A DNA stretch of 64,000 bases. It comes from Parvibaculum indicum (lineage in GTDB: Bacteria; Pseudomonadota; Alphaproteobacteria; Parvibaculales; Parvibaculaceae). Below, piece after piece: positions 19,970 through 36,239 of this stretch. Under the pieces are notes generated by a model. That model saw only the letters and a program-made list of their open reading frames with translations, was not told the origin of the DNA and made no database searches. The stretch lies in NCBI RefSeq assembly GCF_011762095.1, contig NZ_JAASQO010000003.1:62001-126000 (forward strand), in the 5' to 3' direction. The position numbers were made by a program, and so were the translations under genes. Positions within the stretch are counted from its first letter, which is position 1, and each line of letters opens with the position of its first letter.

Positions 19970-19985
19970 TGGCACGGGGCTTGCT
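19970..19985 (+). promoter_or_regulatory. sigma-54 (RpoN) promoter of the ABC importer operon
   Basis: TGGCACGGGGCTTGCT matches the sigma-54 consensus TGGCAC-N5-TTGCW in every fixed base, with GG at 19971-19972 and GC at 19983-19984 exactly 10 bases apart. Transcription should start near 19996, 46 bases before the binding-protein ATG. It implies activation by NtrC or another enhancer-binding protein, fitting nitrogen scavenging. Confidence 0.85.
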
Positions 19986-19988
19986 CCT

Positions 19989-20018
19989 AGTATTACGCAT
20001 TTTGCATTTCGTAATACT
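19989..20018. promoter_or_regulatory. NikR-type operator over the sigma-54 start site
   Basis: AGTATTACG and CGTAATACT form a perfect 9-base inverted repeat with a 12-base spacer. Read as GTATTA-N16-TAATAC it has exactly the half-site spacing of the E. coli NikR operator GTATGA-N16-TCATAC. It overlaps the predicted start (about 19996) of the sigma-54 promoter, a position suited to repression. A NikR-like gene lies at the end of the same gene series (25210-25695). It could instead be an mRNA hairpin. Confidence 0.65.
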
Positions 20019-20041
20019 GACCAACCTCGGGAGTTAATGTG

Positions 20042-21031
20042 ATGGGTCTCAGGAGAAGTCTTGGAATGGCGTTGGGCCTGGCCATGTCGGCAATCATGCT
20101 GGCCGCGCCCGCCCGCGCCGAAGCCCCGCTTAAAATCGGTTACAGCGACTGGCCCGGCTGGGTGGCCTGGCAGGTCGCCATCGACAAGGGCTGGCTCAAG
20201 GAAGCCGGTGTCGCCGCGGATTTCCAGTGGTTCGACTATGTGGCGTCCATGGATGCCTTCGCCGCGGGCAAGCTCGACGCGGTGAGCGTCACCAATGGCG
20301 ATGCGCTCGTCATGGGCGGCAGCGGCACCAAGAGCATCATGATCCTGGTGAACGACTACTCCAACGGCAATGACATGATCATCGCCAAGCCGGGCATCAA
20401 AAGCCTCGCGGAACTGAAGGGCAAGAAGATCGGCGTCGAGATGGGCTTCGTGGACCATCTTCTGCTGCTGAACGGCCTGGAGAAGGCCGACATGACGGAA
20501 TCCGATGTCGAACTCGTCAATGTCGCCACCAACAACACGCCCCAGGTGCTGGCCTCCGGCGATGTCGATGCGGTCGGCGCCTGGCAGCCGAGTTCCGGTC
20601 AGGCGATGAAGCTGGTTCCGGGCGCTCGCCCCATCTACACCTCGGCGGATGAGCCCGGCCTCATCTACGACACGCTGACTGTGACGCCGACGAGCCTTGC
20701 GAACCGCCGCGACGAATATGTGAAGCTCATCAAGGTCTGGGACAAGGTCGTGAAATATATCAACGACCCCGAAACCCAGCCCGACGCGCTGAAGATCATG
20801 TCCGCTCGCGTGGGCCTGACGCCGGCGCAGTACAAGCCGCTTCTCAACGGCACGAAGCTCCTCACCCTCGAAGAAAGCTCCAAGTTCCTGGAGAAGGGCG
20901 ACGGCTTTTCCTCTCTCTACGGATCGTCCCAGATCTCCGACGACTTCAACGTGAAGTACAAGGTCTATGCCGATCCCCAGGACGTCGACAGCTATATCGA
21001 TCCGTCTCTCGAGGCGGATGCCCTGAAGTAA
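20042..21031 (+). CDS. ABC transporter substrate-binding protein, urea-carboxylase/guanidine region type
   Basis: A periplasmic binding protein of 329 residues with a signal peptide ([20 protein letters not shown], cleaved after ARA near residue 27). It has the NMT1/TauA-like fold: [74 protein letters not shown]. This family accompanies urea carboxylase-like operons and was named a putative urea ABC binding protein; given the guanidine-I riboswitch downstream, guanidine or a guanidino compound is the better guess. It lies behind a sigma-54 promoter. Start is the first ATG (20042 in frame); the second Met codon is immediately next. Confidence 0.88.
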
Positions 21032-21075: not shown

Positions 21076-22035
21076 ATGAGTCGGACAAACTGGTTCTCGG
21101 TTCAGACGGAACTGTCGTCGCAAGCAAAGACCGTTCTCGGCGTATTTTCCTTCATACTGCCGATCCTTGTCTGGAGTATCGTGAGCTATGTGCCCGTCGT
21201 GTGGCACCCCCTGGTGCAAATCACCGATCCCGGCAGCGTTTCCTACCTGCAGGTAGACATGCGGATGCCGCGCGGCCCCTTCGAGGACGCGGTGGCCGAG
21301 GCGCAAGCGGAAGGTCAGGCGCCGCCTGAGGGCTTCCCCGCCAACCCGGTCTATCTGCCCGCGCCGCATGAAGTGGCCGAGGCGCTCTATACCGCCTTCG
21401 TCACGCCGCCCCCGTCGAAAGACATGCCCTGGCTGCATCAGAGCCTGTGGCATTCGATCCAGGTCATCTTCTGGGGCTTCTTTCTCTCCTCGGCCATCGG
21501 TGTGCCGCTGGGCGTGCTTTGCGGGGCCTATGCGCCCATCTCGCGCCTCACCGAGCCTTTCGTGGAATTCTTCCGCTATCTTCCCGCGCCGGCCTTCGGT
21601 GCGCTCGCCGTCGCCATTCTGGGGATCTATGACGGCCCGAAGATCGCGATCATCTTCATCGGCACCTTTTTCCAGCAGGTGCTCATCATCGCCAACACGA
21701 CGCGCAAGCTCGATGGCGCGCTCGCCGAAGCGGCGCTGACGCTGGGCGCGGGCAATCTCCAGCTTCTGACGCGCGTTGTGGTGCCGGGCGTCCTGCCCGA
21801 TCTTTATCGCGACCTGCGCATCCTGCTGGGCTGGGCCTGGACCTATCTGATCGTGGCCGAGCTGATCGGCACGACCAGCGGCATCACATGGTTCATCACC
21901 CAGCAGGCGCGTTACCAGCACTTCGAGAACGTATACGCGGCCATCATCATCATCGGCATCATCGGCCTCGGGACCGATCTCGTTCTGGGGATGCTGGCCA
22001 GGCGCTTCTTCCCCTGGGACCGCAACGGAAAATAG
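21076..22035 (+). CDS. ABC transporter permease, guanidine/urea-type importer
   Basis: A 319-residue inner-membrane permease of the BPD_transp_1/SsuC-TauC type with about six helices. A long periplasmic insert (about residues 45-105, rich in Pro, Ala, Glu) separates the first helix from the second, as in permeases found beside urea carboxylase. The EAA loop is ALAEAALTLGAGNLQLLTRVV with the following VPGVLPDLYRDLRILLG. It lies 44 bases after the binding protein and 12 bases before the ATPase, so the three form one importer. Confidence 0.92.
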   Translation: MSRTNWFSVQTELSSQAKTVLGVFSFILPILVWSIVSYVPVVWHPLVQITDPGSVSYLQVDMRMPRGPFEDAVAEAQAEGQAPPEGFPANPVYLPAPHEVAEALYTAFVTPPPSKDMPWLHQSLWHSIQVIFWGFFLSSAIGVPLGVLCGAYAPISRLTEPFVEFFRYLPAPAFGALAVAILGIYDGPKIAIIFIGTFFQQVLIIANTTRKLDGALAEAALTLGAGNLQLLTRVVVPGVLPDLYRDLRILLGWAWTYLIVAELIGTTSGITWFITQQARYQHFENVYAAIIIIGIIGLGTDLVLGMLARRFFPWDRNGK

Positions 22036-22047
22036 AGCGAGGCAACC

Positions 22048-22968
22048 ATGAACCCGGAAAAGGCATTACCGTCCTATCTCGACCAGTCCGACGCGGTGCG
22101 CGAGCGCTTCGAGCGGCTGAAGGAGCGCCCGAAAATTCTCGAAGTGAAAGGCCTCGACAAGGTTTTCGAGACGCCGAAGGGCGAGACGGTGGCGCTGAAG
22201 GACATTCACTTCGACACCCATCGCCGCGAATTTCTGTGCGTTGTCGGTCCGTCCGGCTGCGGCAAGTCCACGCTCATCCGCATTCTGGCCGGGCTGGATG
22301 CGCAGACCGGCGGCGAAGTGCTGCTGGAAGGAAAGCCGGTGCGCGGGCCGGGCAAGGATCGCGGCATGGTGTTCCAGGGCTATACGCTCTTTCCCTGGCT
22401 GTCGGTGAAGCGCAACGTCATGTTCGGTCTCACAGTGAACGGCATGGGGTTCCAGGAGGCCGAGCGCCAGGCACTGCAATGGCTGGCGCTGATCGGCCTG
22501 GAAAAATTCGCCGACGCCTATCCGCATCAATTGTCGGGCGGCATGAAACAGCGCGTCGCTATTGCGCGCGCGCTCGCCAACCAGCCGCGCATTCTGCTGA
22601 TGGACGAACCTTTCGGCGCGCTGGATGCGCAGACCCGCGCCAGGATGCAGGCGCATCTGCTGGAAATCTGGCGCAAAATCGACATCACCATCGTCTTCAT
22701 CACCCATGATCTCGACGAAGCGATCTATCTCGCCGACCGCGTATTGGTGCTGAAGGCGCATCCGGGCGAGGTGCAGGAGCTGATCGAGGTGCCGGTGCCG
22801 CATCCGCGCAAGATGGAGCAGTTCATCTCCGACGAATTCCTCGCCACCAAGGCGCGTCTCGAAGAGCTGATCTATGCCCATGAGGAAAAGGAAGAGGGCG
22901 AGAGCGAGGAAGAATACGACTATCCCGATATGCCGCGTCTCGTCGAAGTCGACGACAGTGTGGATTGA
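22048..22968 (+). CDS. ABC transporter ATPase of the guanidine/urea-type importer
   Basis: A 306-residue ATPase with Walker [16 protein letters not shown]-loop [18 protein letters not shown], signature [15 protein letters not shown], Walker [13 protein letters not shown] and switch His in [12 protein letters not shown]. These features place it in the SsuB/TauB nitrate/sulfonate/taurine importer branch. It carries an N-terminal extension of about 30 residues and an acidic C-terminal tail ([13 protein letters not shown]). The amidohydrolase gene begins 6 bases after the stop. Confidence 0.93.
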
Positions 22969-22973
22969 CCGCC

Positions 22974-23735
22974 ATGCAATGGGCTGAGCGCACATGGGAA
23001 GAACTGCCCGGCGATCTGGAGGCCGCAGCCAACGCGGCCATCCTGCCGGTCGGCGCGACCGAGCAGCACGGACCGCAGATGGGCTGCGGCATGGATGCGG
23101 TGCTCGCCGACAAGCTCTGCCATGCCGTGTCGGAGCGCACCGGCATCCCCATGCTGCCCACCATGTTCTATGGCTGCTCCATCGGCCACAGCAGGCGCTG
23201 GCCCGGCACGATTGCGCTGCAGCCGATCACTCTCATCACGCTCGTCAAGGAGATCGGCGACTGGGCTTACCATTCCGGCGTGCGCCGTCTCTTCATCGTA
23301 AACACGCATGTGACCAATGCCGCGCCGCTTCGATGCGCGCTGGAAATGCTGCGCGCCGAGCATGACGACATGATGGTCTCGCTCGTCAATTCTGCCACGG
23401 TGAGCGCGCGCGTGCGCGAGTTCCATTTCGCCGATGGCGGTGACTGGCATGCCAATGATGCCGAGACATCGCTCATGCTGGCGACCGCGCCGGAGATGGT
23501 GCGGCCGGAAAAGCTCGATGCTTCGGACGATCCCGACCGGACCGACGGGCTCGTCTTCTCCCATCCCGTGAACCGCACCAGCCGCAACGGCGTGACCGGC
23601 GCGCCCTCGCGCGCCTCCGCCGAAAAGGGCGAAACATGGTTCGGCTGGATGGTCGAAGACCTCAGTGAATTCATGGAACGGGGCCTCAAGGAAGAGCCGC
23701 CTCTGCCCCACTCCTATTTCGAGCGGGGCGGCTGA
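22974..23735 (+). CDS. creatininase-family metal-dependent amidohydrolase
   Basis: A 253-residue protein of the creatininase/MftE family. The five metal ligands of the family appear kept: Glu and His in TEQHGP, Asp in GCGMDAV, His in VNTHVTN and Glu in NDAETS. The surrounding motifs depart from the textbook ones (EQHGPQM for EQHGPHL, VNTHVTN for NGHGGN), suggesting a different substrate from creatinine. It is tightly coupled to the importer ATPase (6 bases), so it probably acts on the imported compound or on a product such as a carbamoylated or guanidino intermediate. Start at ATG 22974; an upstream TTG at 22965 overlaps the previous stop. Confidence 0.82.
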   Translation: MQWAERTWEELPGDLEAAANAAILPVGATEQHGPQMGCGMDAVLADKLCHAVSERTGIPMLPTMFYGCSIGHSRRWPGTIALQPITLITLVKEIGDWAYHSGVRRLFIVNTHVTNAAPLRCALEMLRAEHDDMMVSLVNSATVSARVREFHFADGGDWHANDAETSLMLATAPEMVRPEKLDASDDPDRTDGLVFSHPVNRTSRNGVTGAPSRASAEKGETWFGWMVEDLSEFMERGLKEEPPLPHSYFERGG

Positions 23736-23837
23736 CGAAGCAATGCATGGCGAGTGACTGAATTCGATGTGCCGGCGCGAAAGCGCTCGGCGCAAAACGG
23801 GAACGCATGACCTGTCGCGAGAGAGAAAGGCACGGCA

Positions 23838-25199
23838 ATGATGACGGATGAAGAGATCACGACGATCCAGAAGGAACTGCGCGCCAAGGGCGTCAAATAC
23901 TGCATCGGCGCCTATGTGGACATTCACGGCGTGCCGAAAGGCAAGGTGGTGCCGATCGACCATCTGCATCACATGGCGCATGGCTCGGAACGCTATACGG
24001 GCTACGCGCTGGACGGTCTCGGACAGGCGCCGAACGATGATGAGATCACCTCGATTCCGGATCTCAGCCATATCGTCCAGCTTCCCTGGGAGCCCTCCGT
24101 TGCATGGATGCCCGCCGATAACGGGTTTCAGGGTGCCCCCTATCCGCTGAACACCCGCGTCGCGTTGAAGAACATGCTGGCGAAGGCGGCGGAAATGGGC
24201 TTCGGCTTCAATCTCGGTATCGAATGCGAAATCTTCGTCCTGAAGCAGAACGAGGACGGCTCGCTCTCCGTGCCCAATCCGAACGACAAGCTCAACAAGC
24301 CCTGTTACAGCGTCGAAGGGTTCATGGATCAGTTCACCTGGCTCGACAAGGTGGCGACCTGCATCAACGATCTGGGTTGGGATCTCTACTCCTTCGATCA
24401 TGAGGATGCGAACGGCCAGTACGAATTCGACTTCGCCTATGCCGATGCGCTCACCATGTGCGACCGGCTGGTCTTCTTCCGTTACATGGCCAAGGAGTTC
24501 GCCAAGCAGGAAGGCCTGCTTGCGACCATGATGCCCAAACCCTTCGCCGACAAGACGGGTAATGGCGCGCATTTCAACATGTCGCTCTACGACCTGAAGA
24601 CAGGCGGCAATGTCTTCGCTTGCGATCCGAAAGACGATCCGCGCGGGCTCGGCTTGACCGAGACCGGCTATCAGTTCATCGGCGGCATTCTGAAACACGG
24701 GCCTGCGCTCTGCGCCGCCTTCGCGCCGACGGTGAACAGCTACAAGCGTCTCGTGCGCCAGGGTGCGATGAGTTATTTCTCATGGGCGCCGGTCTTCAAC
24801 TCCTACGGCTCCAACAACCGGACGAACTCCGTCCGTGTGCCCGCCGGCGGAGGACGCTGCGAGTCGCGCAATGCAGACGGCGCGGTGAACCCCTATCTCG
24901 CCGCCACGCTGGCGCTCGCCGCCGGTCTTGAAGGCATCCGCGAAGGGATCGACCCGGGCGATCCGAACGAGGATAATCTCTACACGATTTCCGAGTCGGA
25001 GCGCGAAGCGCGCGGCATTCAGTTCCTGCCGCAGAACCTGCAGGAAGCGGTGGCCTGCTTCGCAGACGACCCGATTACAGAGGCGGCGCTGGGGACGGGG
25101 CTTCGCGACGAGTTCGTCAAATACAAGTCCGAGGAATGGCAGGCTTACCATCTCGCCGTCAGCGAGTGGGAAGTGGAACGCTACAGCCATCTTTTCTGA
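23838..25199 (+). CDS. type III (GlnT-like) glutamine synthetase family ligase
   Basis: A 453-residue GS-fold ligase. The beta-grasp part is at about 15-110 ([19 protein letters not shown]). The catalytic part has GIECEIFVL, the metal and glutamate segment [34 protein letters not shown] (HxN-type ATP site) and [22 protein letters not shown]. This is the pattern of GlnT/type III enzymes, which include ammonia-assimilating glutamine synthetases and gamma-glutamylamide ligases such as gamma-glutamylmethylamide synthetase. Within this locus it could capture released ammonia or glutamylate an amine product. AAAGG precedes the ATG. Confidence 0.88.
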
Positions 25200-25209
25200 A
25201 GGGTGAAAA

Positions 25210-25695
25210 ATGTCCGGGAACGGCCCGAACAATGGGAATGGCACACGGACCCTCGACAGCAGGCCCGTAAGCCGCATCAGTATTTCCTTGCCGGAGGAAT
25301 TGCTGACCGAACTCGACCAGATGGTCGAGGATCGGGGGTTTCAAAGCCGGTCCCAGGCGATCAACGACATGCTCCACCAGTTTCTGGTGGAGCATAAGCG
25401 CGAGCGCGGCGACGAGGTGATGGTCGGCATCATCACCATCTATTACGACAACACGGCCAACGGCCTTCAGAAGCAGCTCGCGGACCTTCAGTACCGCTAT
25501 ATCGACGAATGCATCAGCTCCCTCCATGTCCATCTGGCGCATAACCAGACCATGGAGGTCGTGCTGGTGCAGGGGCCGGCCCGAAAGCTCCAGGCGATCG
25601 CCGACGAGATGGTCACCAAGCGCGGTGTCATCGCCGGCAAGATCCAGCTCATGGCCGCGGTCATTCCGCCGCTTCACCCCTTTAGCGGCGACTGA
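25210..25695 (+). CDS. NikR-like ribbon-helix-helix regulator lacking two nickel ligands
   Basis: A 161-residue regulator. The ribbon-helix-helix domain (about 22-60: SRISISLPEELLTELDQMVE then FQSRSQAINDMLHQFL) and the ACT-like NikR C-terminal domain (about 70-155) are clear. Aligned to E. coli NikR, LHVHL keeps His87 and His89 (here His106 and His108), but His76 is Tyr95 and Cys95 is Thr114. High-affinity square-planar nickel binding is therefore unlikely. A 20-residue Asn/Gly-rich N-terminal extension is present. It lies 10 bases after the GS gene; a NikR-spaced operator is found at 19989-20018, so it probably controls the whole upstream operon. Confidence 0.88.
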   Translation: MSGNGPNNGNGTRTLDSRPVSRISISLPEELLTELDQMVEDRGFQSRSQAINDMLHQFLVEHKRERGDEVMVGIITIYYDNTANGLQKQLADLQYRYIDECISSLHVHLAHNQTMEVVLVQGPARKLQAIADEMVTKRGVIAGKIQLMAAVIPPLHPFSGD

Positions 25696-25785: not shown

Positions 25786-25812
25786 CTTATGCCCCTTTAT
25801 CCATGGCATAAG
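25786..25812. repeat. inverted repeat overlapping the -24 element
   Basis: CTTATGCC (25786-25793) and GGCATAAG (25805-25812) are perfect 8-base arms with an 11-base spacer. The right arm contains the -24 GG of the sigma-54 promoter. It may be a regulator site that competes with sigma-54 polymerase, or simply a hairpin ending the upstream transcript. Confidence 0.5.
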
Positions 25813-25819
25813 GTTTGCG
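25804..25819 (+). promoter_or_regulatory. sigma-54 (RpoN) promoter of the guanidine degradation operon
   Basis: TGGCATAAGGTTTGCG has GG at 25805-25806 and GC at 25817-25818 with the obligatory 10-base spacing; one base differs from TGGCAC-N5-TTGCW in the -24 box. The start site would fall near 25830, only about 10 bases before the first conserved guanidine-I riboswitch segment, so the aptamer sits at the very 5' end of the mRNA. Confidence 0.8.
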
Positions 25820-25837
25820 ATAAAGAGAACAGGCAGT

Positions 25838-25952
25838 GGCTAGGGTTCCGGCCGCAATCGGTTTCACGATCGGTGCGGCGACTGGTCCGAGAGCTACACC
25901 CTGACCGGTCAACAGCGGTCAGGTACACGGCGGGACAAAAGCCCGGGAGACG
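25838..25952 (+). ncRNA. guanidine-I (ykkC) riboswitch
   Basis: The conserved ykkC segments occur in order: CTAGGGTTCCG (25840-25850), GGTCCGAGAGCTAC (25884-25897), a variable hairpin with arms CTGACCG/CGGTCAG (25901-25923), and ACACGG with CGGGACAAAAGCCCGGGAGA (25925-25950). These are the hallmark guanidine-binding core sequences. The element precedes carboxyguanidine deiminase and guanidine carboxylase genes, a known context, and should switch them on when guanidine is present. It is distinct from ykkC subtype 2 variants mainly by its gene context; a ppGpp or PRPP variant is unlikely here. Confidence 0.95.
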
Positions 25953-26130: not shown

Positions 26131-26937
26131 ATGGCACAAAGTGCTGACGACGCCCGCGCCGACGAAAAGGCGCGCTACGACGCACTCTTCGCGCAAGGCC
26201 GTGCGAAACGCCGGGACATCAGCGAAGCGCCGGGCAATCCCCGCGACATTCCCGAAAACGACGTTCTTTGGCACGAGACGCTGCCGGGCAGCTGGGGCTG
26301 GTCGCGCCGCGTTCCGCGCGGGCAGTCCCTGCGCATCGCGGCGACGGGTCCGAATTCGGGCGTTTCGGTCTTGCTCTACAACGCCGCGGACCCGACCGAG
26401 CGTTTCAACGCGGGCGACACGGTGAAGATCCAGTGGAGCGCGGCGCTGCAGCGCGGGCGTGTGCTCTTTTCCGATATGGGCCGCGTACTCGCTTCCATTA
26501 CCGACGACACCTTCGGCCACAATGATGCGCTGGCAGGCGGCTCCACGCCGCTCAGCAATGAGCAGAAATATGGCGACGCCACGCTGCGCTCCTCGCGCGG
26601 CAATTTCATTCTGCTCGCCGCCAAGCACGGCCTCAGCAAGGCCGATGTGCCGCCCTGCCTGACGCTCTTCGCCCCCGTCGCGGTCGATGCGGAAGGCCGT
26701 TTCGTCTGGGAAGGCGAGGGTGCGTCCGCTGGCGACTATGTGGATCTGCGCGCGGAGATGGATCTGCTGGTCTTCGTCTCCAATTGCCCGCATCCGCTGG
26801 CGCCCGGTGACTACAACCCCTCCCCTGTCGACCTCACGGTCTGGCAATCGCCGCCACCCGCCGCGGACGATTTCTGCCGCACGGCGACCGAGGAAGCCGT
26901 TCGCGGCTTCGAAAACACAGACCCCCTGTTCCGTTGA
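26131..26937 (+). CDS. cgdA: carboxyguanidine deiminase subunit (UAAP1-type DUF1989)
   Basis: A 268-residue DUF1989 protein, the longer of the pair once called urea amidolyase-associated proteins and now known as carboxyguanidine deiminase, which converts carboxyguanidine to allophanate and ammonia. Typical segments are LPGSWGWSRRVPRGQSLRI, VSVLLYNAADPTERFN, GDYVDLRAEMDLLVFVSNCP and the DYNPSP end. Compared with the second subunit it lacks two cysteines: Ser138 and Ser155 stand where the partner has Cys104 and Cys123. It may therefore be the non-catalytic partner. AAGGAGATGGAGAG precedes the ATG; it is the first gene after the riboswitch. The A/B naming could be the other way round. Confidence 0.88.
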   Translation: MAQSADDARADEKARYDALFAQGRAKRRDISEAPGNPRDIPENDVLWHETLPGSWGWSRRVPRGQSLRIAATGPNSGVSVLLYNAADPTERFNAGDTVKIQWSAALQRGRVLFSDMGRVLASITDDTFGHNDALAGGSTPLSNEQKYGDATLRSSRGNFILLAAKHGLSKADVPPCLTLFAPVAVDAEGRFVWEGEGASAGDYVDLRAEMDLLVFVSNCPHPLAPGDYNPSPVDLTVWQSPPPAADDFCRTATEEAVRGFENTDPLFR

Positions 26938-26952
26938 GGCGAGGATAAACCC

Positions 26953-27582
26953 ATGCAGAACATCGAACGCGATCCCGCCGAGGCGATCTACGACTTCACC
27001 GTTCCCGCAACCCGGCCCTGGTCCTACATGCTGCCCAAGGGGCAGGTGCTGCGCATCGTCGACCTCGAAGGCCAGCAGGCCGTCGACACGCTCTTCTACA
27101 ATGCGCATGACACGGAAGAGCGCTACAGCGCGCAGGACACTGCCCGCATGCAGGGCTCGCCCTATGTCACGGCGGGCACCGGGATCTATTCCAGCGAGGG
27201 CAATCTGATGGCCACCATGCTGGCCGATACGGCGGGCGGTCACGATACCTCCGCCGGGGCCTGCAGCGCGGAGTCGAACACGGTACGTTTCGGCCATGAC
27301 AAGAAATACATGCATAGCTGCCGCGACAATTTCGTCATGGAACTGTCGCGACATGGCATGACGAAGCGCGATCTCGTCAGCAACATCAACTTCTTCATGA
27401 ACGTGCCGGTAGAGCCGGACGGAACGCTCGCCATCGTCGATGGCGTGTCGAAGCCCGGTGACTATGTGGAGCTGCGCGCGGAGATGGACATTCTCGTCTT
27501 CATCTCCAACTGCCCGCAGGTGAACAATCCCTGTAATGGCTTCAACCCGACGCCCGTGCGCACGCTGGTCTGGAAGGCTTGA
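26953..27582 (+). CDS. cgdB: carboxyguanidine deiminase subunit (UAAP2-type DUF1989)
   Basis: A 209-residue DUF1989 protein, 15 bases after its larger homologue. LFYNAHDTEERYSAQDT, GGHDTSAGACSAESN and HSCRDNF with the late ISNCPQVNNPCNGFNPTP are family motifs. His97, Cys104, His121, Cys123 and Cys187 are candidate metal or catalytic residues, of which Cys104, His121 and Cys123 are absent in the first subunit. The pair acts as a heteromer on the product of the following carboxylase, yielding allophanate. Confidence 0.9.
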   Translation: MQNIERDPAEAIYDFTVPATRPWSYMLPKGQVLRIVDLEGQQAVDTLFYNAHDTEERYSAQDTARMQGSPYVTAGTGIYSSEGNLMATMLADTAGGHDTSAGACSAESNTVRFGHDKKYMHSCRDNFVMELSRHGMTKRDLVSNINFFMNVPVEPDGTLAIVDGVSKPGDYVELRAEMDILVFISNCPQVNNPCNGFNPTPVRTLVWKA

Positions 27583-27623: not shown

Positions 27624-30600
27624 ATGTTCAAGAAAGTACTGATCGCCAATCGCGGCGAAATTGCCTGCCGTGTCATCCGCACGCTGAAGCGGATGGGCGT
27701 AGGGTCCGTGGCGATCTATTCCGACGCCGACCGCTTTGCCCCCCATGTGCGGCTTGCCGATGAGGCCGTGCGCGTGGGACCGGCGTCGGTGTCGGAAAGC
27801 TATCTCAATGTCGAGGCGATCCTCGAAGCCATCAGGCAGACAGGCGCGGAAGCCGTCCATCCCGGCTACGGTTTCCTGAGCGAGAACCCCGACTTTGTGG
27901 AACGTCTCGACAAGGAAGGCGTCGCCTTTATCGGGCCTCACCCCGAGCATATGCGGGCCTTTGCGCTGAAGCATACGGCGCGCGATCTGAGCGAGGAGAG
28001 CGGCGTGCCTTTGCTGCCGGGCTCCCCGCTCGTACACGATCTCGAAGAGGCGCGCGCCCATGCCGCCCGGATCGGCTATCCCGTCATGCTGAAAAGCACG
28101 GCGGGGGGCGGCGGCATCGGGCTTCAGCTCTGCAAGTCGGAAGAGGAGCTGCCGCGTCTCTACGAGACGGTGAAGCGGCTGGCGCAGGCGAACTTCTCCG
28201 ATGCCGGTCTTTTCGTCGAAAAATTCGTGGCTCAGGCCCGGCATATCGAGGTGCAGATCTTCGGCGATGGAAAAGGCAAGGTCATCGCGCTGGGCGAACG
28301 CGACTGTTCCGCGCAGCGCCGCAACCAGAAAGTGCTGGAAGAAACCCCGGCGCCCAACCTGCCGGAACTCGTGCGCCGTGAATTGCACGAGGCGGCGGTC
28401 CGCCTCGGCGAAATCGTCGGTTATGCCTCGGCCGGTACGGTGGAGTTCATCTATGACGCCGCCGAACACCGCTTCTACTTCCTGGAGGTGAATACCCGCC
28501 TGCAGGTGGAACACCCGGTAACGGAAGAAGTGACCGGCCTCGATCTTGTCGAGTTGATGGTCGCCCAAGCCGCGGGCGATCTCGACGATCTGGATAACTA
28601 CAAGCGCATGCCCGAAGGTCATTCCATCGAGGTGCGTCTCTATTCCGAAGATCCGGGCAAGAACTTTCAACCCTCCTCCGGCCTGCTGACGGAAGTGAGC
28701 TTCCCGGACGATATTCGCGTCGACGGCTGGATTGCGACCGGCACCGAGGTGTCGCCCTTTTACGATCCGATGCTCGCCAAAATCATCGTGAAGGGCGCAA
28801 CGCGCGAAGAGGCGGCGGCAAAGCTCGCCGATGCGCTCGACGGCTCGTCGGTCTATGGCATCGAAACCAATCTCGACTATCTGCGCCAGATCGCGTGCTC
28901 GGCTGATTTCCTCGAAGGGAAAATGCTGACCTCGACGCTGGCGGGGTTCGCGGGCAATAGCGCCGCCATCGATGTCGTGTCGCCCGGCGCGCTGTCGAGC
29001 ATTCAGGATTATCCTGGCCGCATCGGCTATTGGGATGTCGGCGTGCCGCCTTCCGGTCCCATGGACCCGCTTTCGCACCGTCTGGCAAATCGGCTGGTCG
29101 GCAATGCGGAGGACGCGCCCGCGCTCGAAATGACGCTGATGGGCCCAACGCTTGCTTTCCGCAGGGATGCGGTGATTGCGCTCACCGGTGCGGATATGGA
29201 GCCGACGCTCGACGGTGAGCGAGTACCGCTCTGGCAGGCGGTCGAGGTGAAGAGCGGCCAAACGCTCGCCCTCGGTCAGGTGAGGGGGGAGGGCCAGCGC
29301 GCCTATCTCGCCATCCGCAACGGCTTCGACGTGCCGGACTATCTGGGTTCGCGCTCGACCTTTACACTGGGCCAGTTCGGCGGCCATGCGACCGGGGCGC
29401 TCAAGACGGGCGATGTGCTGCGCATCCGCCGCGAGGGCGCGGTCACGGCCGCCGCTGCCGAGCCGCTGGCGGAACCCGACCGCCCCAAGCTGCAAAGCGA
29501 ATGGGAAATCGCGGTGCTTTACGGCCCGCATGGGGCGCCCGACTTCTTCCTCGACGAAGATATCGAAACGCTCTTCTCCACCGCTTATGAGGTGCACTAC
29601 AACTCCGCGCGCACCGGCGTCCGCCTCATCGGCCCGAAGCCGAAATGGGCGCGCAAGGATGGCGGCGAGGCGGGATTGCATCCCTCCAACATTCACGACA
29701 ATGCCTATGCGGTCGGCACGATCGACTTCACTGGCGACATGCCCATCATCCTCGGTCCGGATGGGCCGAGCCTTGGCGGTTTCGTGTGCCCGGCGACGCT
29801 TGCGAAAGCGGAACTCTGGAAGCTCGGCCAGTTGAAGCCGGGCGACAAGGTGCATTTCCGCCGCATTGGCGACGAGGAAGCGGAAGCCATGCGCCGCCGG
29901 GAAGAGGAATGGGTCGCCAATCTTGCCTTCCCGCATCGGCCAGCGCCCGCCACTTATTCGCCTGCTACGGTGGAGAAGGCCGTGCTGGGCCGCATCACCG
30001 ATCTCGAAACGGAAGTCACCTATCGCCGCGCGGGCGACGACTATCTGCTGATCGAATACGGCCCCATCGTGCTCGACTTTGCGCTGCGCTTCCGCGCGCA
30101 TGCGATGATGGTGACGCTGCGGGAGAAGATTCTCCCCGGCATCATCGAAATGACACCGGGCATCCGCTCGCTGCAGATCCATTACGACCCGGATATGCTG
30201 CCACTGCCGCGCCTCATGGATATCCTGGAAGAGGCGGAGCGCGCCATGCCGTCCGCCGCCGATATGGAAGTGCCGAGCCGCACGGTATATCTGCCCCTTT
30301 CATGGGACGATGAAGCCGCGCAGGAAGCGGTGCGGAAATACGCAACGCTGGTGCGGCCCGACGCGCCCTGGTGCCCGTCCAATATCGAGTTCATCCGCCG
30401 CATCAACGGTCTCGACGGCATTGAGGATGTGAAGCGCATCCTCTTCGAGGCCGATTACATGGTGATGGGGCTGGGCGACGTCTATCTCGGCGCGCCCGTG
30501 GCGACCCCGCTCGATCCGCGCCACCGTCTTGTCACGACGAAATATAATCCCGCCCGCACATGGACGCCGGAAAACGCGGTCGGTATCGGCGGCGCCTATC

Positions 30601-31229
30601 TCTGCGTCTATGGCATGGAGGGGCCCGGCGGCTATCAGCTTGTCGGCCGCACCGTGCAGATGTGGAACCGCTGGCACAGCACAAAGAACTTCGAGCCGGA
30701 AAAGCCCTGGCTGCTGCGCTTCTTCGACCGCTTGAAATTCTATCCCGTCTCGGCGGATGAATTGCTGGAAGCGCGCGAAGCCTTCCTCCATGGCGAGTTC
30801 GAGGTGAAGGTGGAGGAAGGCACGTTCCGCCTTGCCGACAATATGGCCTTCCTCGAGGAGAACGCCGAAAGCATCGAGGCCTTCCGCGTGAAGCAGCGCC
30901 GCGCCTTCGAGGAAGAGCGCCAGCGCTGGGAAGAACAGGGCCTCGCCATGAGCGAGATGGAACCCGACGCGCCCGTGGAAGAAAACGCCATCGACGTGCC
31001 CGACGGTGGCAGGCTCGTCGATGCGGGCGTGCCGGGCAATGTCTGGTCGGTGGATGTGAAGGAAGGCGATGAAGTGGAAGCGGGCCAGCCGCTCGTCATC
31101 CTGGAATCCATGAAAATGGAAATCGAGGTCAAGGCGCCGGAAGCCGCTCGCGTCCACGAAATCCACTGCGCGCCCGGCAAGATGGTGCAGGCGGGCCAGA
31201 CGCTGGTGACGCTCGTCCCGCTCGATTAG
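27624..31229 (+). CDS. guanidine (urea-type) carboxylase, biotin-dependent
   Basis: A 1201-residue single-chain carboxylase without an amidolyase domain. The biotin carboxylase part is about 1-450 (KVLIANRGEIACRVIRTLKR, KSTAGGGGIGLQL, FLEVNTRLQVEHPVTEEVTG). The carboxyltransferase is built from KipA/AHS2 (about 455-770: SSIQDYPGRIGYWDVGVPPS) and KipI/AHS1 (about 800-1010). A C-terminal biotinyl domain carries ESMKME with biotin on Lys1164. The guanidine riboswitch and adjacent deiminase genes indicate that guanidine, not urea, is the physiological substrate, as shown for related enzymes. It uses ATP and bicarbonate and makes carboxyguanidine. Allophanate hydrolase is not encoded nearby. Confidence 0.93.
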   Translation: MFKKVLIANRGEIACRVIRTLKRMGVGSVAIYSDADRFAPHVRLADEAVRVGPASVSESYLNVEAILEAIRQTGAEAVHPGYGFLSENPDFVERLDKEGVAFIGPHPEHMRAFALKHTARDLSEESGVPLLPGSPLVHDLEEARAHAARIGYPVMLKSTAGGGGIGLQLCKSEEELPRLYETVKRLAQANFSDAGLFVEKFVAQARHIEVQIFGDGKGKVIALGERDCSAQRRNQKVLEETPAPNLPELVRRELHEAAVRLGEIVGYASAGTVEFIYDAAEHRFYFLEVNTRLQVEHPVTEEVTGLDLVELMVAQAAGDLDDLDNYKRMPEGHSIEVRLYSEDPGKNFQPSSGLLTEVSFPDDIRVDGWIATGTEVSPFYDPMLAKIIVKGATREEAAAKLADALDGSSVYGIETNLDYLRQIACSADFLEGKMLTSTLAGFAGNSAAIDVVSPGALSSIQDYPGRIGYWDVGVPPSGPMDPLSHRLANRLVGNAEDAPALEMTLMGPTLAFRRDAVIALTGADMEPTLDGERVPLWQAVEVKSGQTLALGQVRGEGQRAYLAIRNGFDVPDYLGSRSTFTLGQFGGHATGALKTGDVLRIRREGAVTAAAAEPLAEPDRPKLQSEWEIAVLYGPHGAPDFFLDEDIETLFSTAYEVHYNSARTGVRLIGPKPKWARKDGGEAGLHPSNIHDNAYAVGTIDFTGDMPIILGPDGPSLGGFVCPATLAKAELWKLGQLKPGDKVHFRRIGDEEAEAMRRREEEWVANLAFPHRPAPATYSPATVEKAVLGRITDLETEVTYRRAGDDYLLIEYGPIVLDFALRFRAHAMMVTLREKILPGIIEMTPGIRSLQIHYDPDMLPLPRLMDILEEAERAMPSAADMEVPSRTVYLPLSWDDEAAQEAVRKYATLVRPDAPWCPSNIEFIRRINGLDGIEDVKRILFEADYMVMGLGDVYLGAPVATPLDPRHRLVTTKYNPARTWTPENAVGIGGAYLCVYGMEGPGGYQLVGRTVQMWNRWHSTKNFEPEKPWLLRFFDRLKFYPVSADELLEAREAFLHGEFEVKVEEGTFRLADNMAFLEENAESIEAFRVKQRRAFEEERQRWEEQGLAMSEMEPDAPVEENAIDVPDGGRLVDAGVPGNVWSVDVKEGDEVEAGQPLVILESMKMEIEVKAPEAARVHEIHCAPGKMVQAGQTLVTLVPLD

Positions 31230-35765: not shown

Positions 35766-36239
35766 TCATGACAGACCCGTCGCAGAGGCCGGAAACCGGA
35801 AAGCCGGTCGGCAGTCTTGCAAGGGGTTGGCGTTGACACTTGAAGGATCGGTCCGGGATTACCGATTGAAGCCATGTGGGGCCGAATTCGCAGTTTTATT
35901 AGTGCGGTGCACCTTAATTCATTCGTAAGGACAGCTTGTGAATGAGGCGGCTGGCCGACGACATGCGCAAATTCGCGCCATCCCGCCGCAAACCGGGCAT
36001 GTATTTCGTCCTATTTTACGTACAAATAGGCCATATGTTTAATATTTACAAATTAAAAAAGCAAAATAGACGAGGCATAGTAGGTTACCCCTAGGGAAAG
36101 GGGTGGCAATTTGGACACGCGGGGTGGAGAATACGCCCGGCGAACCGATGGGCCGATTGTTGCGGGTCGACAGCGGCCCCATCTAACCGGCGTCGCATAT
36201 TTTCCGGTGTTTAACCCCGGTACAAAGGGGGGCTTTTGA
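35766..36239. other. 474-base intergenic region between RND pump and lysR
   Basis: No gene seen. The centre (36005-36075) is AT-rich against a GC-rich background and probably holds the divergent promoters. Two copies of CCCC-N8-GGGG occur at 36088-36103 and 36215-36230 (spacers TAGGGAAA and GGTACAAA), 127 bases apart; the second overlaps the lysR ribosome site. An imperfect dyad TCATTC...GAATGA spans 35919-35945. These are candidate regulator sites. Confidence 0.45.

What the first reader, a model, noticed from the sequence alone, without database searches (positions are those of the whole stretch)
19970..20042. NikR-geometry operator across a sigma-54 start site
GTATTA-N16-TAATAC (19990-20017) has the exact half-site spacing of the NikR operator GTATGA-N16-TCATAC and sits on the predicted start of a consensus sigma-54 promoter (19970-19985). 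The same gene series ends with a NikR-like regulator. This would be repression of an enhancer-driven promoter by a NikR-like protein, in a nitrogen pathway rather than nickel uptake. I know of no described example.
Basis: partly seen in the sequence, partly recalled or inferred. Interest (0 to 1): 0.85.

Follow-up and report, generated by a model that had tools for sequence, protein, structure and literature searches.

The report
NikR-like switch for guanidine-use genes
A bacterial switch protein descended from the nickel sensor NikR, but without its nickel-binding site, appears to turn guanidine-uptake and guanidine-use genes off and on, and may be a long-sought protein sensor for guanidine or a close relative.

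Summary
GTATTACG-N12-CGTAATAC (19990-20017) lies 4 bp after a perfect sigma-54 promoter (19970-19985) and occurs once in the 4.0 Mb genome. In the order it is found in 5 of 6 genomes with the NikR-like gene (the sixth is 57% complete) and in 0 of 34 without it. The same operator recurs (13-16 of 16 bases) in 19 of 19 regulator loci whose promoters were held. Outside the sphingomonad type a sigma-54 promoter precedes it in 13 of 13 scored cases.

The regulator is not a nickel sensor. All 23 clade members read, the window's included, lack NikR ligands His76 and Cys95; all 14 NikRs compared keep all four ligands. The context is guanidine use: guanidine-type carboxylase, UAAP1/2 and ABC importers. 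Here a guanidine-I riboswitch controls the carboxylase half. In 9 loci, all of one lineage, no guanidine riboswitch was found and the NikR-like operator is the only control seen.

Best reading: a repressor at sigma-54 (or other) promoters, released by guanidine or a related guanidino compound. Operator ownership and loss of the nickel site are well supported. Repression, effector and actual binding are inferred. I found no published description in the open-access library.

The parts
19970..19985 (+). sigma-54 promoter TGGCACGGGGCTTGCT
   Evidence: 10/10 to the -24/-12 consensus; 0 of 500 random window 60-mers as good; conserved in L008, L010, L011 and L129; sigma-54 gene present
19990..20017 (.). 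operator dyad GTATTACG-N12-CGTAATAC, NikR half-site geometry, across the predicted start site
20039..21031 (+). ABC substrate-binding protein (NMT1/SsuA type; below cut-off match to TIGR03427 putative urea ABC SBP)
21076..22035 (+). ABC permease
22048..22968 (+). ABC ATPase
22965..23735 (+). creatininase-family hydrolase (substrate unknown)
   Evidence: PF02633; below NCBIfam equivalog cut-offs
23838..25199 (+). type III glutamate--ammonia ligase (GSIII)
   Evidence: TIGR03105 647 bits, cut-off 470
25210..25695 (+). NikR-like regulator without a full nickel site (NikR positions 76->Tyr95, 95->Thr114; His106 and His108 kept), proposed owner of the operator
25804..25819 (+). second sigma-54-like promoter TGGCATAAGGTTTGCG just before the riboswitch
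25829..25951 (+). guanidine-I riboswitch aptamer (RF00442, 84.7 bits, cut-off 63)
26131..26937 (+). UAAP1, probable carboxyguanidine deiminase subunit
   Evidence: TIGR03425 above cut-off; the enzyme name for UAAP proteins is recalled
26953..27582 (+). UAAP2, probable carboxyguanidine deiminase subunit
   Evidence: TIGR03424 above cut-off; the enzyme name is recalled
27624..31229 (+). carboxylase of guanidine type: Asp701 where yeast (Kluyveromyces) urea amidolyase has Asn1330
   Evidence: TIGR02712; alignment to PDB 5i8i/3va7; Asp/Asn rule from PMC12186494 (passage)

Best explanation
The dyad at 19990-20017 is the operator of the NikR-like protein at 25210-25695. That protein is a transcription factor of NikR descent that has lost the nickel site. 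Nitrogen limitation would make the importer operon available through sigma-54 and its enhancer protein. The NikR-like protein, bound across the start site, would keep it off until a guanidino compound (most likely guanidine itself) binds its ACT-type C-terminal domain and releases it. The operon encodes its own repressor, so the circuit is autoregulated. The carboxylase half is gated separately, by a sigma-54-like promoter plus the guanidine-I riboswitch. In sphingomonad-type relatives no guanidine riboswitch is found and the same regulator and operator, placed without sigma-54, are the only control seen on carboxylase loci. Shown by computation: the dyad, its pairing with the regulator, the sigma-54 placement, the ligand loss and the guanidine context. 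Inferred: binding, repression (from position), the effector, and which enhancer protein acts.
For: Operator ownership: order-wide 5/6 with regulator versus 0/34 without. Best dyad 13-16 of 16 bases in 19 of 19 regulator loci, and at most 12 in 19 of 20 carboxylase loci without the regulator (the exception, 13/16 in L101, lies inside the carboxylase gene); 20 first-order simulated sequences per locus reach at most 13. One of those 20 genomes, G960, has a canonical NikR with all four ligands, no dyad (best 11, L097) and a riboswitch. Arms are kept while spacers diverge. The dyad stays with the regulator whether the gene is in the operon (window, L008, L010, L011, L053) or divergent from it (L014, L022, L023, L026). 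Geometry equals the NikR operator GTATGA-N16-TCATAC (PMC7055735 passage), and L022 carries GTATGACG-N12-CGTCATAC. The ribbon Arg (NikR Arg3) is invariant. Sigma-54: 13 of 13 scored dyads outside the sphingomonad type have a 9-10/10 element 3-17 bp upstream; at most 1% of random local 60-mers do as well. Not nickel. Guanidine: Asp-type carboxylase in 13 of 13 regulator-linked loci read; carboxylase gene in 8 of 9 strong regulator genomes versus 48 of 388 others in what appears to be the same 397-genome sample; no guanidine riboswitch in 9 of 14 loci holding regulator and carboxylase versus 1 of 18 Asp-type loci without the regulator (Fisher p 0.0006, not corrected for relatedness).
Against: No binding, expression or ligand data exist here. 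The 9 riboswitch-free loci are exactly one clade of the regulator tree (100/99), so the riboswitch contrast may be a single event and the Fisher p overstates it. In 6 further regulator genomes (G013, G021, G029, G036, G420, G527) the carboxylase lies elsewhere, without a dyad (best 10-11 in 6 of 6); 5 of these 6 loci carry a guanidine-I riboswitch (not L125, an 8 kb stretch from a contig end) and 3 have a second importer binding protein, so the NikR-like operon may serve a different guanidino compound. One genome (G906, L053) has importer, creatininase, GSIII, regulator and dyad but no full-length carboxylase. The creatininase and GSIII genes have no known role in guanidine use. Three sphingomonad loci (L029, L054, L055) reach only 13/16, a score some simulations also reach, and in L024 and L056 the top-scoring dyad is not the one before importer or regulator. 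No enhancer site was identified. Counts are not phylogenetically independent.
Confidence: 0.66

Rival explanations
1. Same regulator and operator, but the effector is not guanidine: another imported nitrogen compound (methylguanidine, creatinine-like or another guanidino compound, urea), or a nitrogen-status signal.
For: The importer operon carries creatininase-family and GSIII genes and is separate from the riboswitch-controlled carboxylase in 5 further genomes. G906 has the module without the carboxylase. One Acinetobacter locus (L025) adds a 2OG-oxygenase and a hypothetical-protein gene whose annotations recall the methylguanidine pair of PMC12508155 (abstract and passages); the sequences were not compared with that pair.
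Against: In sphingomonad-type loci the regulator sits with the carboxylase, UAAP1/2 and allophanate hydrolase and no guanidine riboswitch was found.
Confidence: 0.27
2. A canonical nickel-responsive NikR operator.
For: Operator geometry; the Pfam NikR_C model and three of five NCBIfam NikR models pass their cut-offs; His at NikR positions 87 and 89 is kept in the Parvibaculum type.
Against: His76 and Cys95 are lost in 23 of 23 clade members and His89 also in the sphingomonad and Acinetobacter types. No nickel gene was recognised in the operon. Strict TIGR02793 nikR is not reached, 96 versus 175 bits.
Confidence: 0.02
3. The dyad belongs to another regulator, and the NikR-like gene is only a neighbour.
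For: No footprint exists.
Against: Presence and absence track the NikR-like gene, including L023, where importer and regulator are the only shared genes found. In 20 carboxylase loci without it no intergenic dyad reaches 13/16.
Confidence: 0.04
4. The NikR-like protein binds there but activates rather than represses.
For: In both Acinetobacter loci a dyad lies just upstream of a sigma-54 element before the riboswitch. H. pylori NikR can activate as well as repress (start of abstract in the listing).
Against: In 13 of 13 scored promoters outside the sphingomonad type the dyad lies 3-17 bp downstream of the sigma-54 element, a blocking position.
Confidence: 0.08

Closest known systems
NikR of E. 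coli and Pyrococcus horikoshii (PDB 1q5v/2hzv, 2bj1)
   Same: Ribbon-helix-helix plus NikR_C domains, invariant ribbon Arg, GTAT..-N16-..ATAC operator geometry
   Different: Lacks His76 and Cys95 (and often His89) and Glu30; has Gln at position 102 and a C-terminal P[PQ][LI] tail; context is guanidine use; operator is GTATTACG-N12-CGTAATAC; sits on sigma-54 start sites outside the sphingomonad type
Guanidine-I and guanidine-II riboswitches
   Same: Control the same carboxylase/UAAP/importer gene set; one sits in this window
   Different: RNA, not protein; not found in 9 of 14 loci holding regulator and carboxylase
Guanidine carboxylase operons of Raoultella, Klebsiella and Vreelandella (PMC12186494, PMC12508155; abstracts and passages seen)
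   Same: Guanidine carboxylase, carboxyguanidine-hydrolysing subunits, ABC importer
   Different: In the passages seen they are described as controlled by riboswitches; no protein regulator is mentioned there

Membership tests
NikR nickel-responsive regulators | RHH DNA-binding domain plus NikR_C domain | tested here: met
   PF01402 and PF08753 above cut-off
NikR nickel-responsive regulators | Nickel ligands His76, His87, His89, Cys95 | tested here: not met
   Window protein Tyr, His, His, Thr; 0 of 23 clade members have all four, 14 of 14 NikRs do
NikR nickel-responsive regulators | Operator of two GTAT half-sites with N16 spacing | tested here: met
   protein binding itself not tested
NikR nickel-responsive regulators | Nickel-dependent DNA binding | not testable with these tools
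   Needs a gel shift or ITC
NikR nickel-responsive regulators | TIGR02793 (strict nikR) cut-off | tested here: not met
   96 versus 175.45 bits; PRK04460, PRK01002 and PRK02967 are passed, PRK00630 is not
sigma-54 promoters | TGGCAC-N5-TTGC with GG and GC 10 bp apart | tested here: met
   sigma-54 gene in the genome
sigma-54 promoters | Enhancer-binding protein site upstream | tested here: inconclusive
   Upstream alignment of four loci shows no clear NtrC palindrome by eye
guanidine carboxylase (versus urea carboxylase) | Asp instead of Asn in the active site | tested here: met
   Asp701 opposite Asn1330 of 5i8i; rule from PMC12186494 (passage), residue number recalled and consistent with the alignment
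guanidine-responsive transcription factor | Binds guanidine with a functional effect on DNA binding | not testable with these tools
   Only genomic context supports it

The most novel reading that the evidence does not exclude
This NikR-derived clade is a family of protein guanidine receptors that regulate transcription. It layers on top of guanidine riboswitches in Parvibaculum and Acinetobacter and has replaced them in sphingomonad-type bacteria, acting on sigma-54 and other promoters through one conserved operator.
Probability: 0.46. Interest if true: 0.88.

Novelty: new variant of a known kind. Interest (0 to 1): 0.78.

Why it matters
[quoted passage not shown] This clade is a concrete, bench-ready candidate. 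It would also show a metal sensor turned into a sensor of something else, probably an organic cation, by loss of metal ligands with its operator geometry kept, and a natural exchange between RNA and protein sensing in one pathway.

Tried and rejected
Chance palindrome: rejected by genome-wide uniqueness and by conservation of arms with diverged spacers. Canonical nickel NikR site: rejected on ligands. RNA hairpin in the leader: unlikely, because the predicted transcript would start inside the dyad (inference). Covariation of half-site with ribbon residue 5 (Ser with GTATTA, Thr with GTATGA): not upheld, since L023 has Thr with GTATTA. Further copies of the operator in the own genome: none with fewer than 3 mismatches; at 3 mismatches there are two more places, while the reversed-pattern control gave 17, so these are chance. 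A second operator before the riboswitch in this window: none at 12/16 or better. The 2-mismatch site at 35893 was not examined. AlphaFold2 model of the regulator: mean pLDDT 53, order of elements consistent with RHH plus ACT, too poor for pocket or fold comparison, not used. NtrC site by alignment of four upstream regions: nothing clear by eye. The exact 16-base dyad in a class sample: only the own genome of 385; the exact form is rare and other lineages carry variants. Literature: ten searches listed no paper whose title or abstract start describes a NikR-like or CopG regulator of guanidine or urea-carboxylase genes. Several lists were capped (20 of 38, 25 of 682, 15 of 52, 10 of 11), most listed papers were not opened (for example PMC11578231, with NikR and CopG in the text), and the library lacks most subscription journals. 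The Caulobacter NtrC paper PMC10274813 held none of the terms urea, guanidine, NikR, CopG or allophanate.

Dropped or unscored rows: L009, L012 and L019/L004 were left out of the dyad count because their contigs end before the importer promoter; L129 supplies the operator of the genome of L004 on another contig. The regulator-facing sides of the divergent dyads in L014, L022 and L023 and the two riboswitch-facing Acinetobacter dyads are outside the 13 of 13; the latter two score 0 upstream and 10/10 downstream. The gene behind L129's dyad was judged by likeness to L010, not searched. Of 16 sphingomonad-type dyads scored for sigma-54 (L026 on both sides), 15 reach 0-7/10 and one, L054:10329, reaches 8/10 at 35 bp. 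The 20 carboxylase loci without the regulator were all 8 alphaproteobacterial ones plus 12 of the 40 others, chosen by hand. L014's carboxylase is cut by the stretch and was not scored for Asp/Asn. Weak regulator hits (E above 1e-31) were treated as NikR, which one search confirmed for 12 of 12. Guanidine-I was sought twice (Rfam and own model); guanidine-II and other classes by Rfam's gathering cut-off only.

Full report
What is in the sequence. With up to 2 mismatches the GTATTA-N16-TAATAC pattern is expected 0.12 times per shuffled window, and the exact dyad is unique in the genome. Downstream are a substrate-binding protein, permease, ATPase, creatininase-family hydrolase, type III glutamine synthetase and the NikR-like protein. 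The locus continues with a second sigma-54-like element (25804-25819), a guanidine-I riboswitch at 25829-25951, UAAP1, UAAP2 and a carboxylase. The carboxylase carries Asp701 where the yeast urea enzyme has Asn1330; a 2025 review gives Asp for guanidine carboxylases and Asn for urea carboxylases (PMC12186494, passage).

Whose site it is. In the order (40 genomes), 6 have the NikR-like gene and 5 of these have the dyad; the sixth is 57% complete and its contig ends before the importer promoter. None of the 34 without the gene has a dyad at up to 1 mismatch. Arms are invariant and spacers diverge. In more distant genomes the dyad stays with the regulator although gene order changes: divergent in L014, L022, L023 and L026. 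Best dyad scores are 13-16 of 16 in 19 of 19 regulator loci, against at most 12 in 19 of 20 carboxylase loci without it; the exception (L101, 13/16) lies inside the carboxylase gene. Simulated sequences (first-order, 20 per locus) top out at 12 or 13, so the three 13/16 loci (L029, L054, L055) are not significant on their own. In L024 and L056 the top-scoring dyad is not before importer or regulator; a lower-scoring one is.

Sigma-54. Outside the sphingomonad-type group, 13 of 13 scored dyads (five Parvibaculum-type loci, L014, L022, L023, L053, and four in two Acinetobacter records) have a sigma-54 element scoring 9-10 of 10 and ending 3-17 bp before the dyad; at most 1% of random local 60-mers score as well. 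Two further Acinetobacter dyads lie just upstream of a sigma-54 element that precedes the guanidine-I riboswitch. Among 16 sphingomonad-type dyads none has a 9-10/10 element and one has 8/10 at 35 bp. Several of these dyads contain TTGAC, as expected if they cover a sigma-70 -35 box (inference).

The regulator. It matches solved NikR structures, but NikR ligands His76 and Cys95 are replaced in 23 of 23 clade members read (the window's included), His89 is also lost in the sphingomonad and Acinetobacter types, and Glu30 is lost in all 23; 14 of 14 other NikR proteins keep the four ligands (ligand list from PMC7055735, passage). The ligand-less proteins form one clade at 99/96 support. Shared marks of the clade are Gln at NikR position 102 (one of the 14 NikRs also has it) and a C-terminal P[PQ][LI] tail.

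The pathway and the riboswitch. Strong regulator hits in a 397-genome sample of the phylum coincide with the carboxylase gene in 8 of 9 genomes, against 48 of 388 for the rest (which list the same handles; Fisher p 8e-7, not corrected for relatedness). All 13 regulator-linked carboxylases whose active site was read are Asp-type. Among 14 regulator loci with a carboxylase in the stretch, 5 have a guanidine riboswitch (window, L008, L014, L025, L027) and in 9 none was found, by Rfam and, for guanidine-I, by a model built here. Among 20 carboxylase loci without the regulator, 18 are Asp-type and 17 of those have a riboswitch; in the 2 Asn-type loci none was found. Against this stand 6 regulator genomes whose carboxylase lies elsewhere: 5 of those 6 loci have a guanidine-I riboswitch and 0 of 6 a dyad. 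The 9 riboswitch-free loci are one clade of the regulator tree (100/99), so this may be one replacement event. It is still the main reason to propose a guanidino effector.

What does not fit. G906 has the whole importer module but no full-length carboxylase. Three of the separate carboxylase loci also carry a second importer binding protein. L102 is an Asp-type locus in which neither regulator nor riboswitch was found. The creatininase and GSIII genes are unexplained. These leave room for methylguanidine or another guanidino compound as the true effector.

Mechanism. Most likely the tetramer (by NikR homology) bridges the two half-sites across the sigma-54 start, blocks transcription, and is released by a guanidino compound. 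My odds, each step on its own: dyad owned by this protein about 0.9, repressor about 0.85, guanidino effector about 0.7, guanidine itself about 0.5. The first step rests on computation here; the others are inference.

Relation to what is known. It works like NikR in operator geometry and in sitting on an import operon, but it should not be filed as a NikR, because a defining feature (the nickel site) was tested and not met. I rate it a new variant of a known kind. No paper describing it was found in the searches listed under Tried and rejected.

Noticed in passing
window 25804-25819: A second sigma-54-like promoter (TGGCATAAGGTTTGCG) sits immediately before the guanidine-I riboswitch; L008 has the same arrangement, so sigma-54 and a riboswitch appear to be stacked in series.
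   Followed up: partly
window 22965-25199: A creatininase-family hydrolase and a type III glutamine synthetase travel together with the regulator in Parvibaculum-type loci, L014, L022 and L053 and, without the regulator, in L102; their role in guanidino-nitrogen use is unknown.
   Followed up: partly
L024:20500, L029:5819, L056:13337, L057:3418, L028:6526: Extra operator-like dyads with an embedded TTGAC; in L024 one precedes a sterol desaturase-family gene and in L029 one precedes a TonB-dependent receptor gene, suggesting a wider regulon in sphingomonad-type bacteria.
   Followed up: partly
L053 (G906): Complete importer, creatininase, GSIII, regulator and dyad module in a genome without a full-length guanidine or urea carboxylase.
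   Followed up: partly
L102 (G745): Asp-type carboxylase locus with GSIII, creatininase and oxygenase genes but no guanidine riboswitch and no NikR-like regulator found; a third control mode is likely.
   Followed up: partly
L025 and L027 (Acinetobacter records): Guanidine-use genes with three NikR-like dyads each and a guanidine-I riboswitch; L025 also carries a 2OG-oxygenase, a neighbouring hypothetical protein and an SMR exporter.
   Followed up: partly
L028 (Novosphingobium resinovorum plasmid): Two copies of the NikR-like gene in one locus, each with its own nearby dyad (12/16 and 15/16).
   Followed up: no
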